NCBI GenBank assembly: GCA_024138025.1
Contig: JAMXBD010000364.1
Location: 310,001-374,000 of the forward strand
Source of the DNA: Combretum micranthum
Taxonomy: Eukaryota; Streptophyta; Magnoliopsida; Myrtales; Combretaceae
DNA length: 64,000 bases
Direction: 5' to 3'
The translations under genes and the position numbers were made by a program. The notes under the pieces were generated by a model. That model was not told the origin of the DNA. It worked only from the letters and a program-made list of their open reading frames with translations, and made no database searches. Shown here one piece after another: positions 5,350 through 63,996 of the stretch (position 1 is the stretch's first letter; each line of letters opens with the position of its first letter).

Positions 5350-5419
5350 GTGATCCCAAATTCGACGATTCCCTATCACCGGATTACTTTTACTAAAAGA
5401 CAGGTGATCCAATGGTTGA
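5350..5419 (+). other. Conserved mini-exon of S1 (peptide ...SPDYFY-stop)
   Basis: An acceptor, CCTTTTTAG (to 5349), is followed by GT and then codons reading DPKFDDSLSPDYFY with TAA at 5394-5396. The block ends at a GTGAGT donor at 5420. Length, reading phase and stop position match the other eight S copies, although the peptide here is the most divergent. Confidence 0.55.
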
Positions 5420-16078: not shown

Positions 16079-16147
16079 CTGGCTATAGTAGTAGAAGCTT
16101 CTAATCAAAGTAAACCTCCGGATAAGGTAGCTCGGATTCCACGTCAT
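16079..16147 (-). other. Conserved mini-exon of S2 (peptide ...YPEVYFD-stop)
   Basis: Minus strand: T-rich tract, GTATAG acceptor, AT, then codons DVESELPYPEVYFD with TAG at 16103-16101, then CCAG followed by a consensus GTGAGT donor. Confidence 0.6.
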
Positions 16148-18431: not shown

Positions 18432-20567
18432 AATTTTTGAGGAGGAAAATTTGTGTGAATTAAATAAATTGTGTGTGTTTGTGTGTGTAGCCGGTGTGAA
18501 TGAGAGAAAGGGGAGAGAGTGTGTGTTTTGATTTATTTTGTATTTTTGTTAGTTAAAAGTAATAAGTTGTAAGGTTTTGTATGAATGAAGATATATAAAA
18601 AATGTAAAAGTAGAGACTAGGTATGTAAAGTGTAAGAATAGGTATAAAACAAGTAGAAATAGGTGAATAGTAATAAATAATGTAGAATAGTATTATGAAT
18701 AGTAGATAAAACAAATTAATATCAGTAGTAAAAAAAATACGCATAATTAAGCTATATTTGATATTTTTAGATACCGAGAAATTATAAAACTGATATTTTA
18801 AATTCTTGTTTTTTTATGAGTTTATTGGTATTATCGAAATATTTTTGTTGTCGGCTACACTAGGGCACGGTTTTCAAAAACTGATTCCATTTGGATCCGA
18901 AATACACTAAAAATTAATGAATATGATATTTTTAAGCTTATTTATATTATTACGAATTATTTTCCATAATTATTTCAATTTCATTGTTTAGGGGTTTAAG
19001 AACGCGAGATTATCGAATCTAATTTTACTAGAGTTTTGTTATAGGTTTGTTGACTTTAGAGTTTTCGATTGACTTCTAGTTTAGGATTTAAACATAAATT
19101 GTATCACAAAATTTAGGGGATTGCACATCAAGTAGCATAACTATGCACAAAAACTTTGCTTGTGTATCAAACTAATAGTTTTGAAGTTTATATAGTTAAT
19201 TACATATTTAGACAAACTTCAAATAGCAAATACAATAATATGGTCTAATTTAACAAAATTATAAAAGGAGACTTTGTAAAATAACAAATAAATACAAAGG
19301 TAGAATTGAATTATAACTTTTAAAATGTTACTTATAAAAGCCAAAAGTAACGTTCTTTTCTCATTCTGTCTCTCCCTTTGTCTGTCTTTTCTAATGGGCA
19401 ATTTTCTCTTGAGAAGACACAATAGGACTCTATTATAATGCAATTGAGAGTGATGGAATTGTAAAAGCTAAGTAACACCAAAGAAAAGTCAATTATGCAC
19501 TTATATAAATTTCTTTTAAAAAACTAAAGCCTAATTCATGCATAACAACAAATATATTCAACAATAATAAATAAAGAGATAAGGGAAAGGAAAGTTTACA
19601 CCATAGTTTTAACTTAGAGTTTGGTCCACCCTCTAATCTCCACAACGCACAACAATTGCCTTTCTCAATAGAGGACTTCACCACTTCATTTACAACAATA
19701 ATTTGTCTTAATAGAAGACTTTAACATATCAACAACACAAATGCTTGAGTTGAATTTTTATAAACTTGAACATACTAGACTTAACTCAAGATTTTACCAA
19801 CTTACTCATAACTCACTTAGTGTAGTGTTTGATAAATGATATCAATTACAAATCAATTAGCATTACACTTGACTCTCACTCTCAATATATCACAAATTAC
19901 AATTAATGCTTATAAAGAGAGTTTACAAGGAGATATTTGCAATAATTAAGCTCTAAAGCTTTTCTTCAAGTCCCCAAACACTCGCATTTATAACATCTTG
20001 AAGCGTTCTAGTTGTTGCCAACAAAACACCAAAAATTGGTTAGAAAAGTAAAGCTTTAATGGCTAGTTTTCTACTAACTGGCGTTTGGATATTACAGGCT
20101 TATTGTCTAAATGCTACCTACAAAATAAAGCAACAAACTATCTACCGTCTAAATGCCGCATCCTACCATCCGAAGATAGTCTATCGGAGCATGACCAAAA
20201 TGTTTTTTATCATTCTACCGTCCATATGCCATATTCTAATGCTCGATTCCAACTTCGACACTATTTCATATTTTAATCATAACTTTCTCATCTGAACTCC
20301 AATTAAGATGATTCAAGATGCTATACAAAAGCTTAAAGAGAGATCTACAACTTTTATGTTTTAAGTAAACAAAATAAGGTCTAAAAAGAGTTTGAATCAA
20401 GATAAAATAGCAAGCATAAATAAAAACAAAGCTAAACAAGTTCAAACATATCCAAAACAAATTAAACACTTGTTTTACTAATTAAATATAACTTAAATAT
20501 GATCAAGTGATTAATTGTGCATTTCATTTCCTCATCAAAACATACATTGAACGCCACATGATCAACA

Positions 20568-26186: not shown

Positions 26187-26257
26187 GTAACGAAGTTTGG
26201 GAGGATCCATATTCGAAGGACCATTACGAGTAAAGAGTTTTTAACAAGGATGGCCGA
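26187..26257 (+). other. Conserved mini-exon of S3 (peptide ...YSKDHYE-stop)
   Basis: TTTTGTTTAG acceptor, GT, then codons NEVWEDPYSKDHYE with TAA at 26231-26233, then CGA followed by a GTGAGT donor. The peptide is diverged but keeps phase, acidity, length and stop. Confidence 0.55.
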
Positions 26258-29280: not shown

Positions 29281-29352
29281 TCATCCATGTCTTCATAAAA
29301 CACTTCTAATCGAAATAGTCTTCTGGGTAGAAAGTATCACCTTCTGTGTCGC
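29281..29352 (-). other. Conserved mini-exon of S4 (peptide ...YPEDYFD-stop)
   Basis: Minus strand: TTGTTTAG acceptor, GC, then codons DTEGDTFYPEDYFD with TAG at 29308-29306, then ATGA followed by GTGAGT. Confidence 0.62.
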
Positions 29353-32210: not shown

Positions 32211-32279
32211 TCGGCTATAGTAGCAGAAACTTCTTAGTCGAAGTAATCCTCTGGGTAAGATAATTCGGACTCCATGTTA
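32211..32279 (-). other. Conserved mini-exon of S5 (peptide MESELSYPEDYFD-stop)
   Basis: Minus strand: an acceptor-like GTATAAG, displaced by one base relative to S2, then NMESELSYPEDYFD with TAA at 32236-32234. The donor is degenerate (GTGTGT). An ATG lies in frame at 32275, but S2 has GTG there, so it is not a family feature. Confidence 0.58.
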
Positions 32280-36177: not shown

Positions 36178-36241
36178 GTGTCGAGGATCAAGATCTTGTC
36201 TTCCCCGAGGATTACTTCGACTCCTAGATCGCTATGGATGA
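36178..36241 (+). other. Conserved mini-exon of S6 (peptide ...FPEDYFDS-stop)
   Basis: TTTTGTTTAG acceptor, GT, then codons VEDQDLVFPEDYFDS with TAG at 36225-36227, then ATGA followed by GTGAGT at 36242. Confidence 0.62.
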
Positions 36242-38396: not shown

Positions 38397-38459
38397 TCCA
38401 TGTCGGTAGATCCTAATCGAAGTAATCTTCCGGAAAAGTGATATCGGGTCCTTCTCCAC
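38397..38459 (-). other. Conserved mini-exon of S7 (peptide ...FPEDYFD-stop)
   Basis: Minus strand: CTTGTTTAG acceptor, GT, then codons GEGPDITFPEDYFD with TAG at 38415-38413, then ATGGA followed by GTGAGT. It is one of the cleanest examples. Confidence 0.62.
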
Positions 38460-41032: not shown

Positions 41033-41130
41033 GATGCCATGTCGACTATTCCTCTACGCAGATGAGTCGTTCACACATTCCTCTTAATCAAAATAATCTT
41101 CGGGATATAGATATCCTTCCTCGGAGTCAC
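41033..41130 (-). other. Conserved mini-exon of S8 (peptide ...YPEDYFD-stop)
   Basis: Minus strand: CTTTGGCTAG acceptor, GT, then codons DSEEGYLYPEDYFD with TAA at 41086-41084. The untranslated remainder is longer than in other copies (98 nt in all) and ends ATC followed by GTGAGT. Confidence 0.6.
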
Positions 41131-42803: not shown

Positions 42804-44642
42804 GGAAAATATGGAGTGATTTTTGTGTGATTAAAATAAATAAAAATTGAAACAAAATTGAGGAGAGGGGCAAGGGGGCGCCGGCCATATGCATAGAGAG
42901 GGGGAAGAGATTTTATTTTATTTGTTTTATTTTTGTTAAATAAAATATGTAATATGTAAGGTAGATGTGAAATAAAGTTATGGAAAAGGTAAAAAGTAAA
43001 GGTTATAGGTTATGGAGTGTATAAGAGTAGGTGTAAGAAAAAGCAGAGATAAAAGAATAGTATAGAATAATAATGAATAGTGTAATGTAAAGTAGATATA
43101 ACTAATAAAGTATCGGTAGTAAGAAAATACGCGTATAAATGCGATATCTGTTATTTTTACTTGCCGAAAAATTACGAAATTGATATTTTTGAAAACCTTA
43201 TATTTTTACGAGTCTAACGGTGTATTCGGAATATTTTTACTATTCCAAGGTTTCGGACACGTTTTTCAAGAATTATGTCTGATCGGGTTCGAGACGAGTT
43301 GCGGTTTTACTAATTTGATCTTTTTATATTGCCTTAGATAATTCCGCATTATTCTACATTCTAAACTTCTACTTAGCCTCACCGAGTTTCTTATTCAGGA
43401 GTGCCGGACTTAACCTATTACGTCTAACTAGGGTTTTGTTGACCATAGAGCTCCGGTTGACTTTCGGTTAGGGTTTTAGGCTTAAACCAATGCCAAAAAT
43501 TTGGGGGTTTACACAATTAAAGGGAAAGGAGAAGGGGGTTAGCGCAAATTTAGTGAAGAGAGGAAGAGAAAATTTATTTTTTTGTATTTTTGTTAATTAA
43601 AAGTAAGATATGAAATATGTGAAGTTATATTGGAAATGAAAATGTGTAAGAAATAGAGGTATAAGTTGTAAGAGTAGGTTGTAAGAAAAAGTAGAGATAG
43701 ATAAATAATGTAGAATAGTAGAAAATAGTGTAGTATAAAGTAGACATGACAATTTAAGTACCGGTAATAAGAAAATAGGTGTATAAATGCGATATATGAT
43801 ATTTTTAGCTACCGAAAAATTATGAAGTTGATATTTTTGAAAATCTTATATTTTACGAGTCTAAAAATATATTCAGAATATTTTTACTATTCCGAGCCCC
43901 GAGACATGTTTTTCAAAAACTGTGTCCGATCGGGTTCAAGACGAGTTGCGGTTTTACCAAACTGATCTTTTTAAGCTTTCTTGGATAATTACAAACTATT
44001 CTATCACCTAAGCGTTTTCTTACTCTCCTAGGGTTTCTTAAACAGGAATGCCGAATTTAAGCGGTTATGGTAAACTAGGGTTTTGTTGACTTTAGAAATC
44101 TGGTTGACTTCTAATTATGGTTTAATCTTTAATTTGATTACAAAACTTCGAGGGTTTACAATAAGCTTGTTAGTGAGTTAGTGAGCATTTAGACTCTAAA
44201 ATATATAGATATACATATAGATAATATATATATAAATATAAAGTTAAGTTAGAAACATAATAACAATAATAATAATATAGAATCATAATAATGACAAGAT
44301 AATAAAAATCAGAATTCTTGGCATGTGCAAGAATAAAGCACGGACATGTTGTTGCTTCTACAACTCATATGAGTTATTCAGAAACAACACCATAGTCATG
44401 CTAAGTTACATGACATGAAAAATAAATGGAAGAGTTATAGGTAAGAATATTTACCCAAAGTGGGAATATGGAAGTGGTAATATAAGAAAGGTTTTGGATA
44501 GTTTGTGTGTATAGAAAGTATGTAAGAAATGGGTAGTACAGAAAGTAAAAAGAGGATTTCGAGAGAGAGGATTTGTGAAGTAAATTTGAGAGAGTTTTGT
44601 TAAGGTAAATAAGTGAGTGAAAGAAGTGGAGGGAAATGAAAG

Positions 44643-44650: not shown

Positions 44651-45463
44651 AAATTTTGAAGAGTAAAAATTGTGTGAATTAAATAAATTGGAAAAAAAAA
44701 GAATAGGGATGAAAGAGAGAGAGGGGATGCTGGTTGTGTAAGCGAAGGAGAGAGATGGGGTGTTTTAATTTGTTTTGTATTTTTTTTAATTAAAGTAATA
44801 AATGGTAAGGTATGATGTGAATGAAGATATATGAGAAATGTAAAAAGTAGAGAATATGTATATAGAATATGAGAATAGGTATACAAAAAGTAGAAATAGG
44901 TGAATAATAGTGAATAGTATAGAATAGCATTATGAATAGTAGATAAGACAAATTGATACTGGTAGTAAAGAAAATACGCATAATTATGCTATATATGATA
45001 TTTTTACATACTGAAAAATTATAAAAATAATATTTTTTAAATCCTTGTATTTTTATGAGTTTATTGGTATTATCAGAATATTTTTGCCATGCGTGTACAA
45101 CAGCACAGTTTTCAAAAAACGATCTCGTTCGAATCCAAAAGACACTAAAAATTATCGAATTCGATATTTTTAAGCTTCCTTATATTATTACGAATTATTT
45201 TCCATAATTATTTCGATTTCATTATTTAGGGGTTAAGAGCACGAGATTGCCGGATTTAAATCTACTAGGGTTTGATATAGATTTATTATCTTTAAGATTT
45301 TTGGTTGACTTCCGGTTTAGGGTTTAAGCATGAACTATATCATAAAATCTAGGGCACAGGGCTCATGGTTTGGGAAAGGGAGAATAAAGGATCTGAAAAA
45401 TAAATTTGCAAGAGTTTTGATAGTGTTTAGAAGATGTGTATAAAGAATGAATGAGAAAATGGG

Positions 45464-46531: not shown

Positions 46532-49500
46532 TGTCACGTTCCGAGGGTGTTCTAGTAGTAGTATACATGGCACCCATATATACTATTACTAGTTTACCAC
46601 AAGAGAGTGATATATTTTCAAACAAATAAGATCTTTTAGTTGCATCGATAAGAAATGATAAATACATGTAAGCCATAAATTAGTAAAATAACTGTCATCA
46701 CAAGTTTGGAGTAATATAATATTATAGAGCAAATTCCTATTCTATAAGTTTCTAGAATACATAAACTGATATTTCAAATACTAACTAAATAACAAATAAG
46801 AAATAAAAGTAAAATAACTTATCCCATAATCCCCTAGCTTCTAATTATTGCTGGAGTCATGCACCTAGAAGTACAAGTTAGGGACAGAGTGTCAATTTGA
46901 AAGGTTTTTAGGAGTGTGAACGAAACCACGAGCTTAGTGAATAACCATATATATTACACATTAAGCAAGTTTATTAACAAATCATATGTAATGCAACAAT
47001 CAAACATATGCACATATACAAGCTTGGATGATCTAAAATCCAAACAAGAAAATGATTTGTGCCTTTTTTTCAGGGTTGAAGAATATTTACTTAATAACCC
47101 ACCTGCCTTGGAGAGACTAAGTACACAGGAAAATCAATGATTTCTTGTTTTAGGATTATCACTTCAATTTAAAATATTTTAAACTGATCATTTCCTGCAT
47201 CATATCTCAGAAACTCCCTAAGTATTAGTAATTTTAAAGCGATACCATAGGTGGCATCCTTCATTACCACTTAGTTCATGTAGAACCGATGAAACAAAGA
47301 AAATCTTGAAAGAACTAACATTTTAGAAAAACCAAGCATCAACAAAGAACTAAAATACTAATACGTAACAGGATATCACCCTTTTTGAATATGCATTGAA
47401 TGCAATTCATGTAATGCATGTCTGTTTTAATTGTAAAGCCAATAATTTTTAGTTAGGCTTATGATGATCATACATCACACACACAACATATGACATGCTT
47501 TTCTCAAACCATCAGACAATTTGTATTATCACTTTTATTATCTTGGTTTGTCAACCAAACAAACAACTTACAACACATACTTAATAGATTTTCACAACAA
47601 CCATATTATTACTTTGCATTTCATATGCCACTAGTTACAAACACAAACAATGTAATAGATCTGAGTTACTCTTCTGCTTATTTTGTCTAATTGTAATAGT
47701 CAACAAAAAAGTTCTCAATAGTTTCAAGATCATCTATTGAGATGAATAAAAATATTCATCAGTAAAACATTTATTATATAATTAAACTTCTATGAGTGCC
47801 TAAGTTTTCTATATTGGTATTTGATTTGATTTCTATTACTTGTATTGGTCTTTTAAGGTAATAAATTTTCATTATTTAATATTTATTTTTATTTTGCTTG
47901 TCTTGATATTATAATATTTTATTTTTATCGAGTAGTTATAGAGTTTGTTATTAATAACTCAGTTCTTTATTATCATCATCATCATTATTTTTATACTGTT
48001 CGCTAGTTTGACCACTTTATGATAATTAATATTTATTTTCTATCATTTAGTTTCATTGTGTTTCTCTTGATCTCATTTCATGTTATTATCTGTTATTTAT
48101 GAAATCACATTATTCTTAATTATGAATTATTTAAAATTTCAATTCTTATATACGTGCCTATATAAAGTAATTATTGTACAATTATTGTAATCTAACATTT
48201 TTAGTTAATATAACACAAGTGTTTTCTATTTAAGGATTATTAAAGTTTAATACTAAATAAATATTTAAACACACTAATCTTAAATATTTATATTTATTTA
48301 TTATTTAAGTTTAATGTTATGTTTTTTTAAATATGTATATAATATTGTTAAGGAAGAAACAATTTTCATCCAGGAAAAATTTTGCATGTACGACATCCAA
48401 TGTCATCGGCGTTGAACTCTAAACTGTCTGCGTTCGTTTAATTTTTCACATGTTCTTGTCTCAGGGAATGCTAGCTTCACAAGCTGCCAGCGTTACAGCG
48501 TACGCCACTAGCCTTAAATTCAATATTGTCAATGTTTGTTCATTTTATGTGATAAGAAAATGTACATATCTCTATTCGATTGCACGCCAATCTGAAGGCC
48601 ACCGGCCTATCGACGTACGTCGTTGGATTTGCATACATACACCACCGCGCGTATGGCTGATGCAGGCACTATTCATCATCTTTCTCGCTTTTTTCTAGTT
48701 CAAACTTTCATTTTTCTTATATTATATATGTATTATACTTAGTGTTTTAGTTATTTTAAGTGTGTCTCCATAATCCTTAGCTATTGTTTATGACATACTA
48801 ACATATATAACATTTCATAATCATTAAACTTATGATTTCTTTGCTTCTACATATATTGTAATGTATAAATAGGATTTTTGATTTAGATATTATCTTGTTT
48901 GGGTCGATGAGGTTATGTTATACTCCTTCCCCAAGCTTAACACGAACTTAGGATAATAGAAACATTGTTTAAGACAATGTTTAATACATAAATTAACTTA
49001 GAACTAATTTTTACTTACCTCTCTTGTTGATTCCCTAAGCTTGCTGTGTATCTTAATGAAGCTTGTTTATATAGTTATGTTTGTGTGTGTTTTGTGGTGT
49101 AATGGAGGACAAATTTGGTTGTTGTTTGGTGTGGTTTTATTGTTGTTTTGGTGTAAAATAAGAGTTTTTTTTTTTTTTTGCTCATTAAGTGTTATATATA
49201 TGTATATATATAAATATATACATATATAGACACACATACACAAAGGTAGCAACTTCTTCAAGATTTTTCTGGTAAGAAGGAGAAAATTTCCACCGAAAAT
49301 CAATTTGCATGCCTAGCCTCCTTTGCATTTAACGAAGTGTCTTAATTGGATGATTTTAATTGGTTCATCATCTCTTTTCTTGACTTTTATTAATTTTTTT
49401 TTAACCCACTTGCTTTGGAGATTTCAGTTGGGGAAATTTTAGGCAATCTCAACGGCAACTTCACATCAATTTGCACCGAATTAGATCAATAATTAATATA

Positions 49501-50155
49501 ATATTACTTAATTAACTAATTATCCTAGTTTTAAGGAATTTATTAAGCTAAATGGGTATATTTATATCAATTATTTAGGAGTTATATCTCCAAAAATTTA
49601 TTTAAATCTTCTATAAATTTTTTATATTATCTTTGAATTCAAACTTGAGTTTAAAGTTTATACGATTAATTATTTTTAGGGTTTTATCTTATGCGATTAG
49701 GGTTTTCTAAGCTTAATAGATCAATTTTTGTTTCAGTTTCTAAGAGCTTCAGAATTCTCCAACTAGAACAATAGTGTGATCTAAATATATATTTGGAGTC
49801 TAGATTATTAGTTATGAATATGTTTTTGCTCTTATTGTGTATTTATAACCTTAACGGTTCATCCTTGAATTATCGTTTTCTAACTATAGGCTTTATCGAT
49901 TATTTACTTTCTAATGCGATTGAGATCATATCTTAATCGTTTCTATATTTTATGTTTTTTATACTGACTACGAAGTCTTGTCTTTGGTAGCTGTTAGTAT
50001 CTAAAGGATCATGTTTTAGGGTTTAAAGATATATATAGATTTATAATTACATGTGGTCTTATTCTAGGGTCTTTATTGAGTTCTACATTGATCATCTATT
50101 TTTATATTTGTATTTCTATCTATTTTTACTAGCATGAAAAATCTCAAGGTTTACA
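46532..50155 (-). repeat. 3' LTR of element G
   Basis: 3624 bp, plus-strand reading TGTCACGTTCCGAGG to CAAGGTTTACA. It matches 60539-63996 end to end but contains two segments of about 100 bp that the 5' LTR lacks (about 46705-46800 and about 49395-49500). A TA/CA microsatellite lies at 49190-49240. Confidence 0.92.
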
Positions 50156-50170
50156 TTCTTCCCCCCCTTC
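50156..50170 (-). other. Polypurine tract of G
   Basis: Minus strand GAAGGGGGGGAAGAA directly before the 3' LTR, the start site for plus-strand DNA synthesis. Confidence 0.9.
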
Positions 50171-50174
50171 TAGA

Positions 50175-50306
50175 CTTGCGTGCATACCTGAATTCTCAAA
50201 AAGATGAGGATAGCTCTTCTTGATCTCATCTTCCAGTTCCCATGTCATCTCTTCAGTTTGGGGATCCTATAACAATTTGGCATAACGAATCTCCTTATTT
50301 CTAAGA
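50175..50306 (-). pseudogene. Chromodomain-like C-terminus of G polyprotein
   Basis: On the minus strand the frame reads LRNKEIRYAKLL, an in-frame TAG, then TEEMTWELEDEIKKSYPHLF. This is the C-terminal part of the chromodomain-like module at the end of many plant Ty3/gypsy integrases, thought to steer insertion into heterochromatin. The stop falls where the family has Trp, consistent with TGG to TAG. Confidence 0.75.
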
Positions 50307-50404
50307 GTTTGCACTTTACTATCGAATATCTGAACATGGTGTTTCTCATATGTTAGGTTCTCCTTTAGGTTAATTGGTTCCAATTCAACCACTTTTTTGG
50401 ATCT

Positions 50405-51545
50405 GGTACCTAATTTCTTAGTACCGACACATGAAAAACATTATGTATACTAGATAAATTTGGTGGCAATGCCAAACGATATGCCAGATTTCCAACTCAT
50501 TCCAACATCTCAAATGGTCCAATATATTTGGGACTTATTTTTCCTTTTGTTTTCCACTACGAAGACTTTTGATTAGGCTTATCTTTAGACAAACATGATC
50601 TCCTTTAGTAAATTCTACTTCCCTTCTTTTCAAATCTATCTAGCTCTTTTGCCTGTCTTAAGCTTCTTTCATTTTTTGTTTTATCATGGTAACTTTATCA
50701 ATTGTCTTCTGTACTGATTTAGGCCCAACCATTACTTTCTCCAAGTTATCCCAAAACGATGGTGATCAACACTTTCTACCATACAGTGCTTCATATGGTG
50801 GCATCTAAATACTTGAGTGATAACTATTGTTCTATGCGAATTTCACCAATGGTAAGTGCTGATCCCAATTTCCTTTGAATTCTAGGATATGCAATCTCAA
50901 CATATCTTCTAATGTCTGAATGGTCCTTTTCTATCTGTCCATCAGTTTGTGGATGATACGCTATACTAAACTTTAATTGTGTTTCCAAGGCTTTTTGCAA
51001 CCCTTACCAAAATCTGAAAATAAATCATGGATCTCAATTTGACACTATACCAGCAGGTACACCATGTAGTCTCACAATTTCCTTTAAATATATTCGTGCC
51101 AATTTTTCCAATGGATATGTCACGTTGATTGGCAAGAAATGAGCTGATTTAGTGAGTTTATCCACAATGACCCAAACATCATCCCTACAATTGTCTTAGG
51201 TAGTGAACATACAAAAATCCATAGAAATTTGATCCCATTTCTATTCTGGAATTGGCAACGGTTTCCACCATGTCTTTGGTGTTCAGCTTTTACCCTTTGA
51301 CAGACATCACACTTGGCAACAAACTCAACAACTTCCTTTTTCATTCCATTCCACCAATATGCACTTTCAATTCTTGATACGTCTTTGTTTCTCCTAGATG
51401 TACAGAATATCTAGAATAATGTGCCACATGCATTAGTTCCTTGCTTAAGCTCACATCATGTAGTACACACAATCTTTTTTTCATTTTCAACACTCCTTCA
51501 TCATCTACATGAAAATCTTTATATTTACCTTGTGATACCCCTTGC
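50405..51545 (-). pseudogene. Integrase of G, broken
   Basis: Integrase joins element cDNA to the genome. Visible in order on the minus strand: a linker with KKRLCVLHD (near 51480); the zinc-binding part with MHVAHYSRYSVHLGETKTYQ and then KCDVCQRVKAEHQR (51440-51285); the core with KLARIYLKEIVRLHG, then SN-stop-DP-stop near 51035 where the family has SDRDPRF; YHPQTDGQIEK (near 50930); KGDHVCLKISLIKSLRSG (near 50590); and SPKYIGPFE, LPPNLSSIHNVFHVSVLRN (50520-50410). Frame changes and several stops interrupt it. The catalytic SD is SN here, so it would be inactive even if read through. Confidence 0.85.
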
Positions 51546-51629
51546 TTAATCTCTTGGAATTTTGCATCTTCCTTCTAAGCTTCCTTGATTCGTTGGAGTA
51601 AAGTAGGCTCCAAGACCAAGTTTCCAAGT

Positions 51630-52192
51630 TTAGCTTTTAAACTTTCATTGAGAACTCTAAATTCATCCTTTCAAATTCCCTAATGAGTTCCTTTTGTTCA
51701 ATCAACATTGAAGCTACTTCCCCATAATTTTTCCAACTTAGTGGATCAACTACGACATTCACTTTACTAGGATGATAATTAATGGTTCGATCATAATCCT
51801 TAATTAATTCCAACCATCTTTGTTGCCTCATGTTCAACTCTTTTTGTGTAAATATATGCCTCAAACTTTTGTGATCCGTATATATTTCATATTTTTGCCC
51901 TTACAAATAATGACTTCAAATCATGAGTGCAAAATGATAATAGCAAATTCCAGATCATGAGTGTAGTAATTCATCTCATGTGATTTCAGTTGTCTTGAAG
52001 CATACGCTATTACTCTCCTGTTTGCATCAACATATACCCTAAATTGTTCCTGGATCCACTACTGTATACAACATATGGATCCTTATCATTTGGCAAAACT
52101 AATATTGGTGTAGGTACTAGTCTTTTTTTCAATTCTTGGAAACTTTGTTCTCATTGATCGTTCCATTCAAATTTCTTATTTTTCTTTGTTAA
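51630..52192 (-). pseudogene. RNase H domain of G, broken
   Basis: RNase H removes the RNA strand during reverse transcription. On the minus strand: the connection piece QSFQELKKRLVPTPILVLP, then DPYVVYSSGSRNNLGYMLMQ, YASRQLKSHEMNYYTHDLEF and, in an open stretch 51864-51637, FTQKELNMRQQRWLELIKDY followed by YHPSKVNVVVDPLS. The family has an Asp in the VYCDAS motif; here it reads VYSSGS (52053-52067), so a catalytic residue is lost. Stops and a frame change are also present. Confidence 0.85.
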
Positions 52193-52842
52193 TTACGTTG
52201 GTAGTCGTGCAATCTTTGAGAAATATTGTACAAATTTTCGGTAATATCTTGTTAATCCCAAGAAACTTCTTACTTTCGTAACTGTTTTTGGTCTTTTCCA
52301 TTCCTTAGTAGCTTTAACCTTCACAGGTTCTATAGATATTCCTTCACCAAAAACATTGTATCTAAGAAATGATATGCCTTTAAGCCAAAATTCACATTTA
52401 GACAATTTGGCATATAGCATATTATCTTTCCGTGTTTGCAATACACTTCTCAAGTGTTCTTCATGTTGCTCTTTAGTAGATGAATACACCAATATATCAT
52501 TTATGAATATAATCACACAAATATCTAAGGGTCCGAATATTCTATTCATCAAGTCCATGAAAACTACTGGTACATTTGTTAATCCAAATGCCATGACCAA
52601 AAATTCATAATGACCATACCTAGTTCGAAATGCAGTCTTTGGAGCCTTCATTTAGATTTGATGATATCCCGATTTTAAATCAATTCGAGAAAATACTTTG
52701 GCTCATCGCAATTGATCAAACAGATCATCAATTCTTGGTAAAGGATATTTATTCTTGATAGTAACTCTATTTAATTCCTTGTAATCAATACAAAATCTTA
52801 TTGAACCATCTTTCTTCTTAACAAATAACACCGATGCTCCCT
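52193..52842 (-). pseudogene. Reverse transcriptase of G, broken
   Basis: RT copies element RNA into DNA. From 52840 down: [40 protein letters not shown], a TGA at 52706-52704, FSRIDLKSGYHQI with its catalytic Asp kept, a TAA, then 152 open codons (52651-52193) with [19 protein letters not shown] and [13 protein letters not shown]. The YxDD box reads FIND: the first catalytic Asp is Asn (codon 52501-52499, AAT for GAT). Downstream [15 protein letters not shown] is well kept. Two stops plus the active-site change show that it is dead, although the fold is easy to recognise. Confidence 0.92.
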
Positions 52843-53039
52843 AAGGTGAAACACTGCATCTAATAAATCCTTTATCCATCAATTCTTATGGCTGCACCTT
52901 TAATTCCTTCAACTCCATAGGTGCCATTCGATACAGAGCTTTTGATCCACTTCACTGTATGGGTGTAATCTTAGTAATTCATCTAAAAACACATCTAGAT
53001 ATTCACATACCGTCCTTATAGTTTGATTATCCAATTCTT

Positions 53040-53501
53040 TTGATTCACCCTCTGTAGCTCCAAAAATACATCTGTTTAACTCCATATTCTCTTCATTTTC
53101 AACCTCAATTATTGCTATCTTGCCTCCAACTTCTTTAAGTATCTTACCTATGCATTCCTTTCTTTCTCCTTTGTTGTTAACAAAAGATATCGTTTTGAGA
53201 CGACAATCAACTTTTGCTTTTACAGCAGTTAACTAAGTCATACAAAAAATAACATCATACTTCTGCATATCTACCAAGATCAGATCAATAAATGATTCTC
53301 GATCCCCAATCTTTAATGGACATCTTCTTATCATATTTCATGTTATCACCAAGTTTTCTGTTGGTGTAGTAACTCTTAACTCCTTATTCATAGTCTCAAT
53401 TGGTAGCCCTATACGTCTTTCTAATCCAGCGTTTATGAAAGAATGTGTTACTCCCATATTAAACAAGGCATACGCAGTTTGATCTTTCACTTGAATTGAA
53501 C
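53040..53501 (-). pseudogene. Protease of G, broken
   Basis: Aspartic protease that would cut the polyprotein. The minus-strand frame begins GSIQVKDQTAYALFNMGVTH directly after the proposed intron acceptor, followed by SFINAGLERRIGLPIETMNK. The family motif D-S/T-G-A-T reads NMGVT, so the catalytic Asp is Asn (codon 53460-53458, AAT for GAT). The following segment to about 53040 keeps the spacing to RT but contains stops. Confidence 0.82.
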
Positions 53502-53617
53502 CTATTTATCATTTATTAATTACAGGTTATTTCTAATTCATAAGCGTATTTACTATGCACCTATCGTGTTTGTGCTTTATACTATAAATTTAAATAAGCG
53601 CATATGTAACTACATAC
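53502..53617 (-). other. Putative spliceosomal intron between gag and protease of G
   Basis: On the minus strand the gag frame reads DYSLTV and then CTGTAG followed by GTATGT (donor at 53617). If not spliced it ends two codons later (G M stop). 116 AT-rich bases later ATAAATAG is followed by GTTCAATTC (53501). Joining the two gives T V G S I Q V K D Q T A Y in one frame, with the glycine codon split across the junction, leading straight into the protease motif. GT..AG borders, length, AT-richness and exact frame agree. Confidence 0.7.
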
Positions 53618-55013
53618 CTACAGTGAGACTATAGTCATCGGGTTTAGCTTCCTCCCATATGTTTTCTCCATCATTCTCCTCTATCTCCACTTCATCAATT
53701 GGAGTTCCATACATAGCAAAGACTTTAGCTACTGTAGTAGCTTTGCTGGCGTTACTGTTTCCATCTTTCCATCTAGTAGCTCCAATTGCTCCTTTGGTCT
53801 GTGATGAACCAACTACAGTGATAACTCTCTGTGCACAGTTGGTTGATACATGACCGACTTTGTTACAAACAAAACTAGTTGCGTTCTTCCTTTTACACAT
53901 GTATTTTCCATGTGTCCACTTTCACCACAACAATTAATCTTGTGCAGCAATATAGGCATTCTCTTGGATAGTGAAAGCCTTTGCATTTCCAACATGTGAT
54001 AGTGGTTTTCCTAGTTGTTCCTCCCTAACTCACTTCGGAGGAATTGAAAATTTTGGTTTTCTTAAACACGAGATTTGTCACAGAATTATCATAAGTTCTT
54101 TTTCCAAAGGTCTGTCCCCTCTTCTTATACCTCTCAATCTCATATTTCTTTGGACGTTTAATGATTCGAGCTTTTTCTATCATGGCCACAAAATCAGAAA
54201 TCTCAAACATAGCAAATCTCCTTTGAAAGTTAGGTTCTAACCCGACCATGAAAGTTTGCCTTTTTAGCTCATTGCTGTCTCGATAAGCATTCAGAGCAAA
54301 CTGAACAACCTATTGAATTCAAGTTCATATTCATCAATTGTTTTATTGCCCTGTGTCAGGTTCATTAGGTCAATATTATACTTCTCCTTTAAACTACTCG
54401 AGAAATATTCCTTCATAAATTCTTGTCTAAATACTTCCCAGGTAATAGGTCATGGCAACCCTCTTTGCTTAGAATCTCAACATATCCCTGCTCTTAATCT
54501 TAGCAAATAAGATTCACATGGTACCCTCAGAGCTTCTGATACCTAGAATACATCCAATGATCGCTCAATCTGAGCTAACCGATCCTCAGCTTCTTTTAGC
54601 TTCCCTAGTATCCCTTCGAAATACCTGTTAAACTTTATGAATTTAGGTAATAAGTTCCTTTGAGGATGTAATGGTGGTGGTGGTCGTAATTCTTGTCCAC
54701 GTCAAGGCGGTCCTTGCACTTCAACAGTAGATTCAACCCGATTGTTATGATCCACTGGTCCATTTACATGAAATTAGATTAGTGCAGCATGTCCCACATT
54801 TCTTTTGGTAGGTGCTGGAGGCTTTGCTAATGCTTTAGCTGGTAGGGCTACATGTGATCCTTGCACATTTTGCTAAGCGTACAGTATTAATGCATTTTGC
54901 TATTGGAGTGTTTACAAAATGTCCTCCAGCCGATTTTAGGATGGTGCAGACACATTTTTTGGTAGATTTTTATATATCCTTGCATTTCTACTCCTACTTC
55001 TTCTACTTGGCAT
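53618..55013 (-). pseudogene. gag: Gag of G, broken
   Basis: Gag builds the particle and binds the RNA. The likely start is ATG at 55013 (MPSRRSRSRNARIYKN). The frame then has several stops, mostly TAG where a Gln is plausible. Then come a proline run (PPPPLHPQRNLLPKF near 54660), LKEAEDRLAQIERSLDVF, the capsid part with WEVFRQEFMKEYFSSSLKEK and LTQGNKTIDEYELEFNRLFS (about 54450-54300), MVGLEPNFQRRFAMFEISDF (54249), and two zinc-knuckle-like boxes, CCGESGHMENTC (about 53930) and SFVCNKVGHVSTNC (about 53870), both missing the first Cys of the pattern. The end is acidic (IDEVEIEENDGENIWEEAKP). Confidence 0.85.
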
Positions 55014-55294
55014 TCTATTCGCATCAAACATGTCGATTGAGTTAAATTTCATTCATCATAACTCATTTTTACAAAAAGTAATTATAAGCATGCATATATA
55101 TATATATATTCACATATATCTATAAATCCAAAAACATACATAAGTTTCCATAGTTAATGCTATATGTACATAACAAAATTGGCACTAACCCTACTTCCTA
55201 TCATCTACTACTAATATCATCAAAGGTTAAGTGATCATCATTCTGCATAGTCCGTTATATACATATCATCATAAGTCCATCAAAATAACACATC
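55014..55294 (-). other. G leader segment between gag and S9
   Basis: Untranslated or degraded leader of G. A short TA run lies at 55095-55108. It ends with acatc (55290-55294), the left TSD of S9, and continues at 59387. Confidence 0.6.
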
Positions 55295-55954
55295 TGTAAA
55301 CCTCGTTTTCTTAGTAAACCAAACTCGGTTTCGGAAATCGAAATCGGAAACTGAAACCCTAAAAAGAATTCTTAGGGCTAGTTTGGAATCTAGGAACCCT
55401 AAGTTTGATAGTACCAAGAACAAAACCTTCGAACAATAAAAATGAATTAGCTTTAGAATATAGTCCTAAATAATATATCGAAACATAAAAAGATCAGATT
55501 TCGGAAAAATTCATTTGTTTTGAACCCGATCAAGATCTGTTTTCGAAAATCAATCCCCTATGCTCAAAAATAGAAAAATATTCCGTAGGACTCTTTAGAA
55601 CTGAAATTTAATAAGGAAATAAAAAATATAATTATAAGAATTTTTTCGGTTTATAAAAATTATAACTATAGTCATTTTATCGTGTTTTCATTACTACCGA
55701 TAATTTATTTGTCTAATCTACTTTTTGATTTCCAATCATTATTATTCACCAAGTACGACCAATCATACCAATTTCTTACATCCTTACAACCCATCTCTTA
55801 CATCCTTACATTCTATTTCTTATAATTTACTTTTCCAATACAATTTTATTACTTAAATTACTTAATTAAATTTGAAATATTACACAACACAACACACACA
55901 TCACTCTCTCTCCCTCTTTCACTCAAGTCCGGCGCCTCCCCCATCCACCCCCCA

Positions 55955-55998
55955 ACCCCCTCCCCTCCCCTCCCCTCCCCTCCTCTCCTCTCCTCTTT
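55955..55998. repeat. CCCCT/CCTCT repeat in S9 promoter
   Basis: Tandem CCCCT units changing to CCTCT units, upstream of the TATA box. Confidence 0.85.
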
Positions 55999-56062
55999 TA
56001 CTCTCTCAATTTGTTTTATTTTCTTTCGTTTATTTCATTACACACACCCTAATCCCATTTTC

Positions 56063-56070
56063 TATATAAA
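56063..56070 (+). promoter_or_regulatory. TATA box of S9
   Basis: TATATAAA, followed by a pyrimidine-rich leader to the donor at 56203. Confidence 0.55.
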
Positions 56071-56456
56071 ACCATTTCACTTTACACTTTCTTTCTTTTT
56101 CACTTAACCAAACTTTTGAAATTTTTCCTCTCAACTCCCCCTCCCTCTCTAACACACACATAAATATTTTCTTCAAGTTTTCTTGTCCCAAACACTTAAT
56201 AGGTAATAGATCTAAGACCTACCACAAATAAAACATATAATGGCAAGATCATACATGTGTGATTCCATCAAAATCCCCATGAGATTTAGGCAAGAGATGT
56301 GGAAACACTTGAACATGATATTCATGCCATCACATGTTGTGGATCTCTTGTTTTAAGTTGTTTTACTATATTCTTGCTATATTATTGCTATATATATTCT
56401 TGTTGATATTTTTGTTGATGTATCTTGCTACTAACCTTATCATCATAATGGTTCAT

Positions 56457-56836
56457 GTTAGGTATAAAGTCCAAAGGGGAGAGCCCAACCCAAAAGACTA
56501 GTCTATTAGGTGGGAGAACCCTTTAGGCCCATCCCTTAAGAAGCTGACGCCTTCGGTGGCTTACTCTAGGTGGACTACTCTAGATGGCTTTCACTCTAGG
56601 TGGCTGCACTCTAACTCTTTTTCTAGATAGCCCTTTCTTAAGTAGCCCTTTCCAGGTCACTCCTTCCTAGGTTGGCCCTTCCATTAGCGTCGATCTCTTA
56701 ACGAGAGTACCAAATGTTAGGTATTAAGTCCAAAGGGGAGAGCCCGACCCAAAAGACTAACCTATTAGGTGGGAGAACCCTTTAGGCTTAAGTACCATTC
56801 TACAATTTCTTGTAGAACCGATGTGGGTTCGTAACA
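56457..56836 (+). mobile_element. TRIM-like mini retrotransposon in S9
   Basis: A 380-bp element, TGTTAGGTAT to GGTTCGTAACA, between exact copies of gttca (56452-56456 and 56837-56841). The complete 3' terminal repeat is 56715-56836 (122 bp). The 5' repeat keeps only the first 73 bp (56457-56529) before sequence diverges, so its second half and any primer site were deleted. The middle has tandem CTCTAGGTGG-type units. The end ACCGATGTGGGTTCGTAACA is of a kind common to plant TRIM elements. GC content is clearly higher than in the surrounding DNA. Confidence 0.85.
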
Positions 56837-58329
56837 GTTCAACTTGCATTTCATGCATTTAACAACATCATCATACTAATGTAACTTTTGAGACTAGTCT
56901 TTCTAGTCTTGGGAAGCCTTGAATATGATCTAAGGCTTCTAAGCTTGCATTTACATCCATAAGATAAATGTCATTATACTCCTATTTTGTTTTAAGTATA
57001 TAAATGCTATAAAAATTTTGTTTTATGTGAATAAAAACTGGTAATATTATGGCATTAATAAGGATGTTACCAAAAGCTCAAGATTTATTTTTGTTTCCAT
57101 TTAAAACAAAATTTTAAATTCGCATTTAAAAAGACACCCATTTTGAAAACCTATTTTCTAACCTCAAAATGAAGATTTTATATAAACTATGAAAGGCTTA
57201 TGGAATATGTATAATAAAGGAATGATTTTGATGAGTTAAATCTAGTTTTACTAGGAGATATTTTCAAATTAAGAAATGTTTACAAAAGTTAAATTAGAAC
57301 TTTGTCTCAACTCCAACGACAACATAAAATTCATAATTAGGAGGAGTTGATATGTAAGCACTTAAATTCCAATCCCAAAATAATAGTTTTATTAAAAAAA
57401 AAATAGAAGTCTCAAGCAATAGGTTTGATTAGGACTTAATTTTAGAAAGATCAAATGAGTTTTGCCCAATAAATAACCTCAAAACAAATTAACAAAAATT
57501 TGAATTTGGAAAGATGCCACATTTAAACACCTATTTTAGAACTCCAAAATGAGGATTTTAATTGAGAAATAGAAGCCTTTAGGAATAGGTATAGTAAGGA
57601 TTTAATTGTGACAATAACAAATGGATTTTATCAAAGAATATTTCTAAAACAAAGGAAAAGCTTCAACATATAAATCAAACTTTATTTTCATCACCAACAA
57701 TTCTTGCAAAATTCGTAACTAGGCAAGATCCCCACTTAAACATCTATTTTCCAACTCCTAAATGAAGAAATTTCTTAAAATAATGAGGGTATTAGGCATA
57801 TAGGTCATCAAGGCTTCATTTTAGTAAGAATAAAGATGATTTTTCAAAAAACAAAACTAGTTTTCCTAAATCAAGTATTCTTGAAGTTTTCTCAAACTGA
57901 AATTTATCTAAAAATCCATTTTAACCAAATATCATCAAGAACATACATATAGATAGCTCATAACATGCCATTCAGGATATTAACTTGTGGATATTGCATG
58001 TACATTTATTATACATGGTAGAAATAATGTAAGTTTTCACAAAACAATTTTGGAAACATGATTTTTACCTACTGACTAGATCTGATCCGAACTTTTTGAG
58101 ACCTAAAAGTTTTCAAAAATTAGAAATAACATTAGAATTATATAAATCTTTTGAAGTAGATAGAAATGAACTACTTATTTGCGAAATTCCAAGTTAAAAT
58201 GACTAAGTTAAGGTCGTTTTAATTTGGAATTTTCACTAATCACGAAAATTACGAACTTGAAAGTTTTTGTTTGATAAGCTAGAATTAGATATGGTTGAAA
58301 ATACTCACTTGGGTATTTCTTTCGTTTAG

Positions 58330-58396
58330 GTGATTTCGAATCGGAGGATTATTTGCCCTTGGACTATTATGAATAGAGACCGGATACCATGGCCGT
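58330..58396 (+). other. Conserved mini-exon of S9 (peptide ...LPLDYYE-stop)
   Basis: TTTCGTTTAG acceptor, GT, then codons DFESEDYLPLDYYE with TAG at 58374-58376, then a GTGAGT donor at 58397. Diverged but same phase, acidity and stop. Confidence 0.58.
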
Positions 58397-60290: not shown

Positions 60291-60517
60291 AATATCTCCC
60301 ATCTAATATGACAAATGGCTGGATTAGTCTACACATAACAAAATCTGCATGACTAATAATAATCATACAGATTTCATTCTATTTGTGCATCTAATGCTAC
60401 TCATGACTATCCAACTAATGCTAAAGGGTTTCGATTGGGTCTATACTTATGCTTTCACTACTACATTTACCAATTTATATTCTTACACACATATATCTTT
60501 CTTATACTAGCATCCAC

Positions 60518-60529
60518 GCTCTGATACCA
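60518..60529 (-). other. tRNA-iMet primer binding site of G
   Basis: Minus strand TGGTATCAGAGC, an exact match to the usual initiator-methionine primer site, starting nine bases after the 5' LTR end. It sets the start of minus-strand DNA synthesis. Confidence 0.9.
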
Positions 60530-60538
60530 ACTTAAAAC

Positions 60539-63143
60539 TATCACACCCCGAAGGCATCCTAGTAGTTGTATACATGCCCCCATATATACTATTATCGGTT
60601 TAACACTAGAGTGTGACATGTTTTCAAACAAATAAGATCTTTTAGTTGCATCAATAAGAAATAACAAATACTATAAGCCATAAATTAGTAAAGTAATTGT
60701 CATCATAAGGAAATAAAATTAAAATAACTTATCCCAAACATCCCATAATCCCCTAGCTTCTAATTATTATCGTAGTCATGCTCCTAGAAGTAACAAGCCA
60801 GGATTGGAGTGTGAACTTGAAAGGTATTTAGTAGTGTAAGCAAAACCACGGGCTCAATGAATAACTAGATATATTGCACATTAAGCAAGTTTATTAACAA
60901 ATCATATGTAATGCAACAATCAAATATATTCACAGATACAAGCTTGGATAATCTAGAATCAAAATAAGAAAAAGATTTACACCCTCTTTTTAAGGTTGAA
61001 GGATATTTACTTAATGACCACTTGCCTAAGAGAGATTACGTACACAGGAAAATCAATGATTTCTCGCTTTAGGATTATCGCTTTAATTTTAAGATTTTTT
61101 AAAATGCATTTACTACATCATACCTTAAAAACTCCATAAATATTAGTAATTTCAAAACGATACCATGTGCAGCATCCTTCATTGCTACTTAGTTCTCATG
61201 GAACCGATGGAACAAAGAAAATCTTGGAAGAACTAACATTTTAGAAAAACTAAGCATTAACAGAGAACTGAAATACTAATACGTAGCAGATTGTCACCTT
61301 TTTTTTTAATTTGCAATGAATGCAGTTCGTGTAATGCATGTATGTTTTAATTATAAAGCCAATAATTTTTAATCAGTCTTATGGTGATCATACATTACAC
61401 ATACAACATATAACATGCTTTTCTCAAATCATCAAACAGTCTGTATTATCACTTTTATTATCTTGGTTTGTCAACCAAATAAATAGCTCACAACACATAC
61501 TCAATAGATTTCCACAATAACCATATTGTTATCTTTAAATTACATATGCTATTAGTTATAAACACGAACAATGTACTAGATCTGAGTTACTCGCCTGCTC
61601 ACTTTGTTTAATCATAATAGTCAACTAGAAAGTCCTCAACAGTTTCAAGATCACCTATTGAGATGAATAAAAATATTCATCAGTAAAACATATATTATAT
61701 AACTAAACTCCTATGAGTACCTAAGTGTACTATATTGGTATTTGATTTAATTTCTTTTATCTGTATTGGTCTTTTAAGGTAATAATCCTATAGTAATATA
61801 TTTTCATTATTTAATATTTATTTTTATTTTGCTTTTCTTGATATTAAAATATTTTATTTTTATCGTGTAGTTATAGAGTTTGTATTTAATAACTCGGTAC
61901 TTTATTATTACCATCCTTATTATCTTTATATTGTTTGTTAGTTTGACCACTTTATGGTAACTAATGTTTATTTTCTATTATTTAGTTTCATTATGTTTCT
62001 CTTGATCTCATTTCACGTTATTATCTGTTATTTATGGGAATCACATTATTCTTAATTTTGACTTATTTACAATTTCCATTCTTATATAATTGCCCATATA
62101 AAGTAATTATTGTACAATTATTATAGTCTAACATTTTTATTTAATATAACACAAGTATTTTCTATTTAAAGATTATTAAAGTTTAACACTAAATAAATAT
62201 TTAAATACACTAATCTTAAGATATTTATATTTATTTATTATTTAAGTTTAATGTTTTGTTTTGTTTTTTTTTTAACTATGTGTATATAATACTATTATGG
62301 ACAAAACAATTTTCTTCCAGGGAAAATTTTGCACATATGCTATCATCTAATGCCGCCGGCATTGAACTCTAAACTGCCGGTATTCATGTAATTTTCACGT
62401 GTTCTTGTTCTAGGGAAAGCAGGCTTCGAAAGTCGCCCACGTTATAATGGACGTCGTCGGCCTTCAATTCTACATCTACATCGCCAATGTTCGCTCATTT
62501 TAAGTAAAAAGAAAAAAAATTACATATCTCTATTTCAATACAAGCTGACCCGAAGGTCACCGGCCTATAGATGTACGCCACCAGCTTTAGGAGCATATAC
62601 CGTTGACATAGGGTTGGGGTAGGCACTGTTCATCATCTTCCCCATTTTTCTCTTGTTCAAACTTCATTTTTCTTATATTATATGTGTATTATACTCATCA
62701 TTTTAGCTATTTTAAGTGTTTCTCCATAATCCTGAGCTGTTGTTTATGACATACTAACACATATAACATTTCATAATAATTAAAGTTTACGATTTCCTTA
62801 CTTCTACATATATTGTAATATATAAATAGGGTTTTTGATTAGATATTATCTTGTTTAGGCTGATGAGGTGATGTTATACTCCTTCCCCAAGCTTGACACC
62901 TACCTAGGTTAATAGAAACATTGTTTAAGACAATGTTTAATACTTAAATTAACTTAGAACAAAATTTTACTTACCTCCCTTGTTGATTCCCTAAGCTTGT
63001 TATGTATTTTAATGAAGCTTATTTATAAAGTTATGTTTATGTGTGTTTTGTGCTGCAATGGAGGACGGATTTGGGTATTGTTTGGTGTGGTTTTGTTGTT
63101 GCTTTGGTATCAATTGAGAGTTTTGTTTGTTGCTCATTAAGTG

Positions 63144-63182
<39 letters not shown>

Positions 63183-63996
63183 TACAAAGGCAGTAACTTC
63201 TTCAAGAGTTTTCGGCCATGAAGGAGAAAATTTCCACCGAAAATAAATTTGCATGCCTAGCCTCCTTTACCTTTAATGAAGTGTCATAATTGGATGATTT
63301 TAATTGGTTCATCATCTCTTTTCTCGACTTTTATTAATATAATATTATTTAATTAACTAATTATCCTAGTTTTAAGGTAATTTATTAAGCTAAATGTGTA
63401 TATTTGGATAAGTTATTTAGGAGTTTTATCTCTAAAAAATTATTTAAAGCTTCAACAAATTTTCTAGATTATCTTTGAATTAAAACTTGAGTTTAAAGTT
63501 TTACGTGATTAATTATTTTTAAGGTTTTATTTTACACGATTAGGGTTTTCTAAGCTTACCAGGTTAATTTTTGTTTTAGATTCTAAGAGTTTCAGAATTC
63601 TCTAACTAGAACAATAAGTGATCCAAATATTTATTTAGAGTCTAGAGTGTTAGTTATGAATTTGTTTTTGTTCTTATTATGTATTTATAACCTTAACGAT
63701 TTATCTTTAAATTATCGTTTTGTAACTATAGGCTTTATAGATTATTTTCCTTCTAATGTTCTTGAGATCAATCTTAATCATTTCTATATTTTGAGTTTTT
63801 GATACCAACTACAAAGTCTTATCTTTGGTATATGTTACTATCTAGAGCACCTTGTTTTAGGGTTTGAAGATATATATAGATTCATAACTACTTATGTCTT
63901 ATTCTAGGGTCTTTATTAAGTCTTACATTGATCATCTATTTTTATATTTGTATTTCTATCTATTTTTACTTGCATGACAAAATCTTGAGGTTTACA
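60539..63996 (-). repeat. 5' LTR of element G
   Basis: 3458 bp. On the minus strand it runs from TGTAAACCTCAAG at 63996 to GGGGTGTGATA at 60539; the end should be ACA and has become ATA. It carries a (CA)n run at 63147-63178 where the 3' LTR has TA-rich sequence. The partner LTR differs at many positions, so the element is old. Confidence 0.92.
63147..63184. repeat. CA microsatellite in G 5' LTR
   Basis: About sixteen CA units followed by CATA units. The equivalent place in the 3' LTR (49190-49240) is a TATATA/CACA mixture. Confidence 0.9.

What the first reader, a model, noticed from the sequence alone, without database searches (positions are those of the whole stretch)
38397..38459. Conserved mini-exon with a PEDYFD-stop peptide in all nine S LTRs
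Nine separately inserted S LTRs each carry a 63-98-nt block with a T-rich acceptor (usually TTTAG) and a GTGAGT-type donor. The blocks are 5350-5419, 16079-16147, 26187-26257, 29281-29352, 32211-32279, 36178-36241, 38397-38459, 41033-41130 and 58330-58396. In eight of them the acceptor is followed by two bases and then whole codons (S5 is displaced by one base). All end in a stop after 14-16 acidic codons: FPEDYFD, YPEDYFD (three copies), FPEDYFDS, YPEVYFD, SPDYFY, LPLDYYE, SKDHYE. Among the PEDYFD copies nearly all nucleotide differences are silent (CCG/CCA/CCC, GAA/GAG, GAT/GAC, TAT/TAC, TTT/TTC, TAG/TAA). Non-coding LTR decay does not predict this. The upstream coding exon is not identified: the TATA-proximal leader lacks ATG, and the acceptor phase demands a partial codon upstream. 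An LTR that supplies a protein's C-terminus by splicing is not something I know from plant retrotransposon families.
Basis: partly seen in the sequence, partly recalled or inferred. Interest (0 to 1): 0.88.

Follow-up and report, generated by a model that had tools for sequence, protein, structure and literature searches.

The report
LTR exon starts Gag, ends Pol
In a family of plant jumping genes, one tiny coding block inside the terminal repeat appears to be spliced in twice, supplying the last amino acids of the polymerase at one end and the start codon of the capsid protein at the other, though no RNA has yet been seen to show it.

Summary
The nine blocks are real, and two more lie in the window, in both LTRs of an element 'T' (46552-63996). 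The missing upstream exon is found. Pol of these Ty3/gypsy chromodomain elements ends ...LFEESG (S7 type) or ...LFENSG (T) at a donor, TCAG|GTATG, just before the polypurine tract, in phase 1. That is the phase the mini-exon acceptor (+2 bases) needs, so the 3' LTR copy would give Pol an acidic tail ending PEDYFD-stop. The same exon also ends in ATG, 0 or 1 codon, and two bases before GTGAGT. That phase fits an acceptor at the start of gag, which has no consistent ATG of its own in S7-type copies. One LTR exon would thus end Pol and start Gag. The 5' intron would remove U5 and primer site, the 3' intron polypurine tract and U3, so mRNA and genomic RNA would be different molecules. Substitutions follow codons (pN/pS 0.26 in the last six codons; third-position excess, combined p 0.001; absent in T alone). 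No RNA evidence was available, no spliced DNA copy was found, and partner sites are shown only for S7-type and T elements. A new variant of a known kind.

The parts
5350..5419 (+). S1 mini-exon; coding 5352-5396 (DPKFDDSLSPDYFY-stop), ends ATGGTTGA|GTGAGT
16079..16147 (-). S2 mini-exon; coding 16101-16145 (DVESELPYPEVYFD-stop); ATG position reads ATA
26187..26257 (+). S3 mini-exon; coding 26189-26233 (NEVWEDPYSKDHYE-stop), ends ATGGCCGA|GTGAGT
29281..29352 (-). S4 mini-exon; coding 29306-29350 (DTEGDTFYPEDYFD-stop), ends ATGGATGA|GTGAGT
32211..32279 (-). S5 mini-exon, decayed acceptor (TATAAG), frame displaced by one base (NMESELSYPEDYFD-stop), ATG position reads ATA; relative L024 keeps acceptor and ATG
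36178..36241 (+). S6 mini-exon; coding 36180-36227 (VEDQDLVFPEDYFDS-stop), ends ATGGATGA|GTGAGT
38397..38459 (-). S7 mini-exon (the finding); coding 38413-38457 (GEGPDITFPEDYFD-stop), ends ATGGA|GTGAGT
41033..41130 (-). S8 mini-exon; coding 41084-41128 (DSEEGYLYPEDYFD-stop), ends ATGGCATC|GTGAGT
58330..58396 (+). S9 mini-exon; coding 58332-58376 (DFESEDYLPLDYYE-stop), ends ATGGCCGT|GTGAGT
61595..61654 (-). T mini-exon in the 5' LTR (DLETVEDFLVDYYD-stop); ATG and donor decayed here (GTG, GC), kept in most other T copies
47674..47733 (-). T mini-exon in the 3' LTR (DLETIENFFVDYYN-stop), donor decayed
50187..50188 (-). Predicted splice donor at the end of T pol: TTCAG|GTATGC, last exon base 50188, codon phase 1
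   Evidence: seven further T copies
55014..55015 (-). Predicted splice acceptor at the start of T gag: GCGAATAG|A ATG CCA AGT, first exon base 55014, needs a phase-2 donor
46552..50155 (-). 3' LTR of element T (bounds approximate)
60559..63996 (-). 5' LTR of element T (bounds approximate; reaches the window end)

Best explanation
The block is a dual-use internal coding exon in the LTRs of a group of chromodomain Ty3/gypsy (Tekay/Del-like) retrotransposons. In the 3' LTR it is the last coding exon of Pol: the pol frame leaves through a donor just before the polypurine tract (codon phase 1) and enters the mini-exon, which adds 14-15 mostly acidic and aromatic residues (typically ...PEDYFD) and the stop. 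In the 5' LTR the same exon supplies the start: its ATG (0-1 further codons, then two bases) is spliced to the first codons of gag. The two introns remove U5 + primer binding site + leader, and polypurine tract + U3, so the translated mRNA cannot be reverse transcribed, while unspliced genomic RNA of S7-type elements lacks the intended Gag start and carries a short Pol ending (GMNFKF-stop). Shown: exon, splice-site sequences, phases, codon-wise constraint, physical pairing of the sites. Inferred: that splicing occurs, that the exon lies in the R region, the division of RNA roles, the function of the tail.
For: Pol donor TCAG|GTATG in phase 1 in L009, L011, L014, L016 and the window's T; in seven further T pol ends GT is kept in 6 of 7, TCAG|GT in 4 of 7. 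The mini-exon acceptor + 2 bases matches that phase in 8 of 9 window S copies. The length from the ATG position to the donor leaves two bases in 82 of 84 distinct copies; ATG itself is kept in 75 of 84. Gag acceptors needing a phase-2 donor in L009, L011, L013, L016 and T; L009 and L016 have no in-frame ATG between the nearest upstream stop and gag. Codon-wise substitution. The T and S groups share the exon although their flanks do not align. Genome-wide pairing: of 23 listed perfect donors on contigs C2-C263, 5 have a listed perfect acceptor 2.10-2.64 kb downstream on the same strand, 5 one 7.37-7.52 kb upstream, 3 both (read by eye). Three of nine named Zingiber officinale models among the proteins held end in short acidic peptides.
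Against: No RNA was examined. No spliced junction exists as DNA: 0 matches for pol|exon at 2 mismatches and for exon|gag in S7 and T at 3 mismatches, though the model expects this. T copies show no third-position excess (p 0.45). L011 and L013 have one and three in-frame ATGs upstream of gag, and T has an ATG at gag itself. The S7 gag acceptor has a weak pyrimidine tract. Partner sites were not found for S1-S6, S8, S9; two attempts (14 and 6 stretches) gave nothing. The closest protein relative, P0001, reads the unspliced ending. TATA and AATAAA matches are common in this AT-rich LTR, so the R-region placement is weak.
Confidence: 0.62

Rival explanations
1. Only the Pol half is real: the mini-exon is the last coding exon of Pol, and the ATG near its end is an incidental feature of the leader; Gag starts elsewhere, as T with its ATG at gag itself could do.
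For: T has an in-frame ATG directly at gag; L011 and L013 have in-frame ATGs upstream.
Against: ATG kept in 75 of 84 copies and its phase to the donor in 82 of 84, with linkers of different length between families. L009 and L016 have no usable in-frame ATG.
Confidence: 0.17
2. The block is a leader exon with a short upstream reading frame that regulates translation, its start lying in another 5' exon; Pol simply ends at GMNFKF-stop.
For: The exon lies downstream of a conserved stretch with TATA-like sequence in S LTRs.
Against: The frame enters at the acceptor in mid-codon and needs a coding exon upstream; the pol end supplies exactly that phase in S7-type and T elements.
Confidence: 0.07
3. 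The block is a conserved non-coding LTR signal or leftover whose coding look is coincidence.
For: No RNA was examined; about 40% of S9 flank columns are also invariant, and T shows no third-position excess.
Against: Codon-wise substitution in the right register only in S9, S4 and S7; exon shared by S and T groups with unalignable flanks; acceptor, pol donor, ATG and gag phases agree.
Confidence: 0.05
4. The ATG of the mini-exon serves the extra reading frame ORF0 between primer site and gag rather than gag.
For: ORF0 lies between the two sites and S7 copies have AAG where the L015 copy has ATG.
Against: At the U-rich acceptor before ORF0 (TTTTGATAG|CTAAC) the phase is wrong and a stop follows at once (by eye).
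Confidence: 0.03

Closest known systems
CRM group A centromeric chromoviruses (PMC3059260; passages read)
   Same: A chromodomain-type Ty3/gypsy element whose integrase C-terminus is encoded in the 3' LTR.
   Different: There the frame runs on contiguously into the LTR. Here it stops before the LTR unless an intron is removed, and the same exon also carries a start codon.
Tekay/Del chromoviruses (PMC6317226; passages read)
   Same: Domain content, chromodomain at the Pol end, long LTRs.
   Different: The passages seen describe no LTR-coded exon or intron for them. Here both ends of the polyprotein seem to depend on one.
Ogre, EVADE and BARE1 spliced plant retrotransposons (PMC12786077, PMC3735527; passages read)
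   Same: Splicing of plant LTR-element RNA changes which protein is made.
   Different: Their introns lie in the internal coding part: between gag-protease and RT in Ogre, removing the protease part in EVADE, just beyond gag in BARE1. None uses an LTR exon.
BARE separate RNA pools (PMC3735527; passages read)
   Same: RNAs for translation and for replication are different molecules.
   Different: BARE does it with two promoters, capping and poly(A); here splicing is proposed to do it.
Retroviruses that splice a 5' donor or gag start codon to a distant frame (recalled, not looked up)
   Same: A start codon or leader near the 5' LTR is joined by splicing to a distant frame.
   Different: I recall none that uses one repeated exon as both first and last coding exon of gag-pol.

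Membership tests
Tekay/Del-type plant chromovirus | Gag, protease, RT, RNase H, integrase in Ty3/gypsy order | tested here: met
   Pfam hits in order over separate stretches of S7 copies; the integrase core hit (25.9 bits) is below its cut-off of 32.6
Tekay/Del-type plant chromovirus | Chromodomain at the integrase C-terminus | tested here: met
   PF00385 in L014, 25.4 bits against cut-off 25.1; narrow margin
Tekay/Del-type plant chromovirus | Primer site complementary to initiator tRNA-Met | tested here: inconclusive
   TTGGTATCAGAGC follows the 5' LTR in L013 and L015; that this is the tRNA-Met site is recalled
Tekay/Del-type plant chromovirus | RT tree places it in the Tekay clade | not tested
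   no labelled reference set was used; the clade name is inferred
CRM group A | Pol frame contiguous into the 3' LTR | tested here: not met
   S7 pol stops at GMNFKF before the LTR start
Ogre-type intron | Intron between gag-protease and RT | tested here: not met
   the predicted introns lie before gag and after the chromodomain
EVADE/BARE1-type short-Gag splicing | Intron that truncates Pol just beyond Gag | not tested
   that region was not searched for splice sites
BARE-like separation of mRNA and genomic RNA | Separate RNA pools seen in tissue | not testable with these tools
   no RNA data
Spliced plant intron | Donor and acceptor dinucleotides, compatible phases | tested here: met
   GT 80 of 84 and AG 74 of 84 at the mini-exon; pol and gag partners in S7-type and T only
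Spliced plant intron | Removal seen in RNA | not testable with these tools
   no RNA; spliced DNA copies absent

The most novel reading that the evidence does not exclude
Flowering-plant Tekay-type elements more widely, from this species to ginger, use one LTR exon as both the first and the last coding exon of gag-pol. Host splicing then marks which transcripts are mRNA (no primer site, no polypurine tract) and which are genomes (no Gag start), and the spliced acidic C-terminal peptide next to the chromodomain directs integration.
Probability: 0.25. Interest if true: 0.92.

Novelty: new variant of a known kind. Interest (0 to 1): 0.76.

Why it matters
If true, it shows for an abundant class of plant elements how one kind of transcript can serve both translation and replication: the host spliceosome would sort them. 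It also means that the annotated C-terminus of these polymerases, next to the chromodomain thought to direct integration, is incomplete, and that the Gag start is misplaced in some families. Both can be tested at once in existing long-read RNA data.

Tried and rejected
Spliced DNA copies: none for pol|exon in S7 (up to 2 mismatches) or exon|gag in S7 and T (up to 3; the backwards control gave 1 match). The unspliced S7 sites match 2237 and 836 times, so the pol|exon search had power; the number of gag-side sites was not counted.

Partner sites of other families: 14 stretches 2.66-3.06 kb upstream of S9 mini-exons showed no pol end joined to an S9 LTR that I recognised; 6 stretches before S6-type LTR starts showed no pol end.

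Protein relatives: 120 best of 703 and 120 best of 7923 were listed. A search with the tail of P0008 found only itself. Of 232 proteins held, a script cut a tail from 199; the other 33 were dropped.

ORF0 as partner of the ATG: rejected on phase. Chance or non-coding reading: judged unlikely, with T as the exception. Profile search of the window: three weak extra hits (E 0.57, 1.1, 8.7); only the first was followed and proved to be T. Papers: six answered searches listed none that I recognised as describing a spliced LTR exon of this kind; six papers were opened, by passages only, and most listed papers were not.

Full report
Observation. All nine blocks exist as described. In sense orientation each reads T-rich tract, AG, two bases, 14-15 codons, stop, a short linker, then a GT donor (GTGAGT in eight, GTGTGT in S5). 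S5 has lost its acceptor (TATAAG), which explains its displacement; its relative L024 keeps both acceptor and ATG. A profile of eight of the nine blocks (S8 left out) found the nine and three weak further hits in the window. The best of these (E 0.57) lies in the 5' LTR of an element, and the matching place in its 3' LTR carries the same block: CAATAG, GT, DLETVEDFLVDYYD-stop. This family, T, has 20 further fetched copies. Outside the exon the T and S LTRs do not align well, so the exon is what the two groups share.

The missing upstream exon. S7 LTRs belong to Ty3/gypsy elements with gag, protease, RT, RNase H, integrase and chromodomain; in L009 the LTR is about 3.2 kb. The pol frame ends ...LFEESG|MNFKF-stop; at the bar the DNA reads TCA G|GT ATG AAC, a good donor just upstream of the purine tract. 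L009, L011, L014 and the S7-like L016 agree; L011 carries the place twice; L023 reads TCAA|GTATGA in a broken frame. T reads ...LFENSG with its last exon base at 50188. Of seven more T copies, GT is kept in 6 and TCAG|GT in 4 (two of the seven are identical). The donor leaves one base of a codon, and the mini-exon acceptor is followed by two. The predicted S7 product runs ...LFEES-G-GEGPEITFPEDYFD-stop.

The second use. After the stop, S1, S3, S4, S6, S7, S8 and S9 have an ATG close to the donor: ATGGTTGA, ATGGCCGA, ATGGATGA (S4, S6), ATGGA, ATGGCATC, ATGGCCGT; S2 and S5 have ATA. Most T copies read ATGAGCAG, though both window copies are decayed there. From the ATG position to the donor the length leaves two bases in 82 of 84 distinct copies; the ATG is intact in 75 of 84. 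The start of gag in L009, L011, L013, L016 and T offers an acceptor that needs exactly two bases: TTAACAG|A CGA GGT AGG in S7, ATTAACAG|A CGA AAT AGA in L016, AATAG|A ATG CCA AGT in T. In S7 a second candidate with a better pyrimidine tract, CTTTCC(A)AAG|A, is in the same phase (by eye). L009 and L016 have no ATG between the nearest upstream in-frame stop and gag; L011 and L013 have one and three. The stretch upstream differs between copies by single-base gaps, so it is unlikely to be coding. T keeps an ATG of its own, in frame after the acceptor.

Selection. Within families, diversity by codon position was 0.131/0.082/0.255 (S9, 30 copies), 0.168/0.124/0.350 (S4, 20), 0.033/0.053/0.090 (S7, 13) and 0.179/0.113/0.152 (T, 21). 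The S7 set leaves out duplicate loci and the L015/L016 subfamily. Permutation of columns gave p 0.003, 0.001, 0.14 and 0.45, combined 0.001; copies share ancestry, so these values are approximate. Leaving out CpG columns keeps the pattern in S9, S4 and S7. The stop codon varies more at its third base than at the first two in S9, S4 and T, and not at all in S7. Between ten representatives the values are 0.37/0.42/0.67 (p 0.0004), pN/pS 0.49 overall, 0.26 in the last six codons and 0.69 in the first eight. Flank control for S9: 3 of 752 windows reach the exon value, all overlapping near +440. In the 30 S9 copies acceptor AG, donor GT and the first two bases of ATG do not vary, but about 40% of flank columns do not vary either.

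Pairing in the genome. At up to 2 mismatches the S7 acceptor side occurs 2237 times and the S7 donor side 836 times; patterns read backwards occur 0 times. Comparing by eye the perfect matches listed (the first 100 of each), 23 donors lie on C2-C263: 5 have a listed acceptor 2.10-2.64 kb downstream on the same strand, 5 have one 7.37-7.52 kb upstream, and 3 (C72, C79, C237) have both. Joined forms occur 0 times.

Mechanism. If the exon lies in R, both RNA ends carry it. L009 has a TATA-like match at -167 and an AATAAA at +216 of the mini-exon, among many such matches in an AT-rich LTR; start and poly(A) sites are not mapped. Removing the 5' intron takes out U5, primer site and leader; removing the 3' intron takes out purine tract and U3. 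Such an RNA could be translated but not copied, which agrees with the absence of spliced DNA copies; an unspliced RNA could be copied but in S7-type elements lacks the intended Gag start. All of this is inference. The acidic, aromatic tail follows the chromodomain; a role in directing integration is a guess by analogy with CRM elements, whose integrase end also lies in the LTR (PMC3059260, passages).

Elsewhere. Nine proteins among the 232 held are named Zingiber officinale. Three have short acidic endings: P0008 (GEDVSPDTVEDLRME) and P0124 (GENDVDDIGGFDA) directly after ...YPELF, and P0016 (GEDVSLDTMEGLRTE) after a longer stretch. P0008 and P0016 are different loci with nearly the same ending. 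The other five show no such ending: P0033 ends differently, P0127 in GKF, P0054 stops short, and for P0131 and P0204 no tail was cut out. The closest relative listed, P0001 (80% identity), reads the unspliced form.

Known systems. A 2025 review says plant LTR elements generally lack introns, with Ogre and EVADE as notable exceptions (PMC12786077, passages). BARE1 also splices and makes separate RNAs for translation and replication from two promoters (PMC3735527, passages). CRM group A extends its frame into the 3' LTR. In six answered searches I recognised no paper describing an LTR exon used at both ends; most listed papers were not opened.

Verdict. Observation confirmed; interpretation supported and extended. 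RNA evidence is wholly lacking, and both partner sites are shown for S7-type and T elements only.

Noticed in passing
L009 about 3560-4700; L012 1-1130 (-); L013 2803-3770; L015 6733-7700: S7-type elements carry an extra sense-strand frame (ORF0, roughly 300-370 residues, acidic second half) between primer site and gag. L009 against L015 shows codon periodicity in several windows; pieces have no Pfam match at E 0.5. It lies inside the predicted 5' intron.
   Followed up: partly
window, about 100-200 bases upstream of each S mini-exon: A stretch with TATA-like sequence is conserved among the S LTRs and absent from T; probably promoter or leader.
   Followed up: no
window 18606-18816, 43032-43206, 43644-43854, 44843-45053: Repeats of about 175-194 bases recur within LTR sequence of this region; LTR lengths upstream of the mini-exon differ between copies.
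   Followed up: no
L011 about 4687-4830 (-); C364:930687 and 930806: The pol end with its donor-like site is duplicated in tandem about 119 bases apart in this copy.
   Followed up: no
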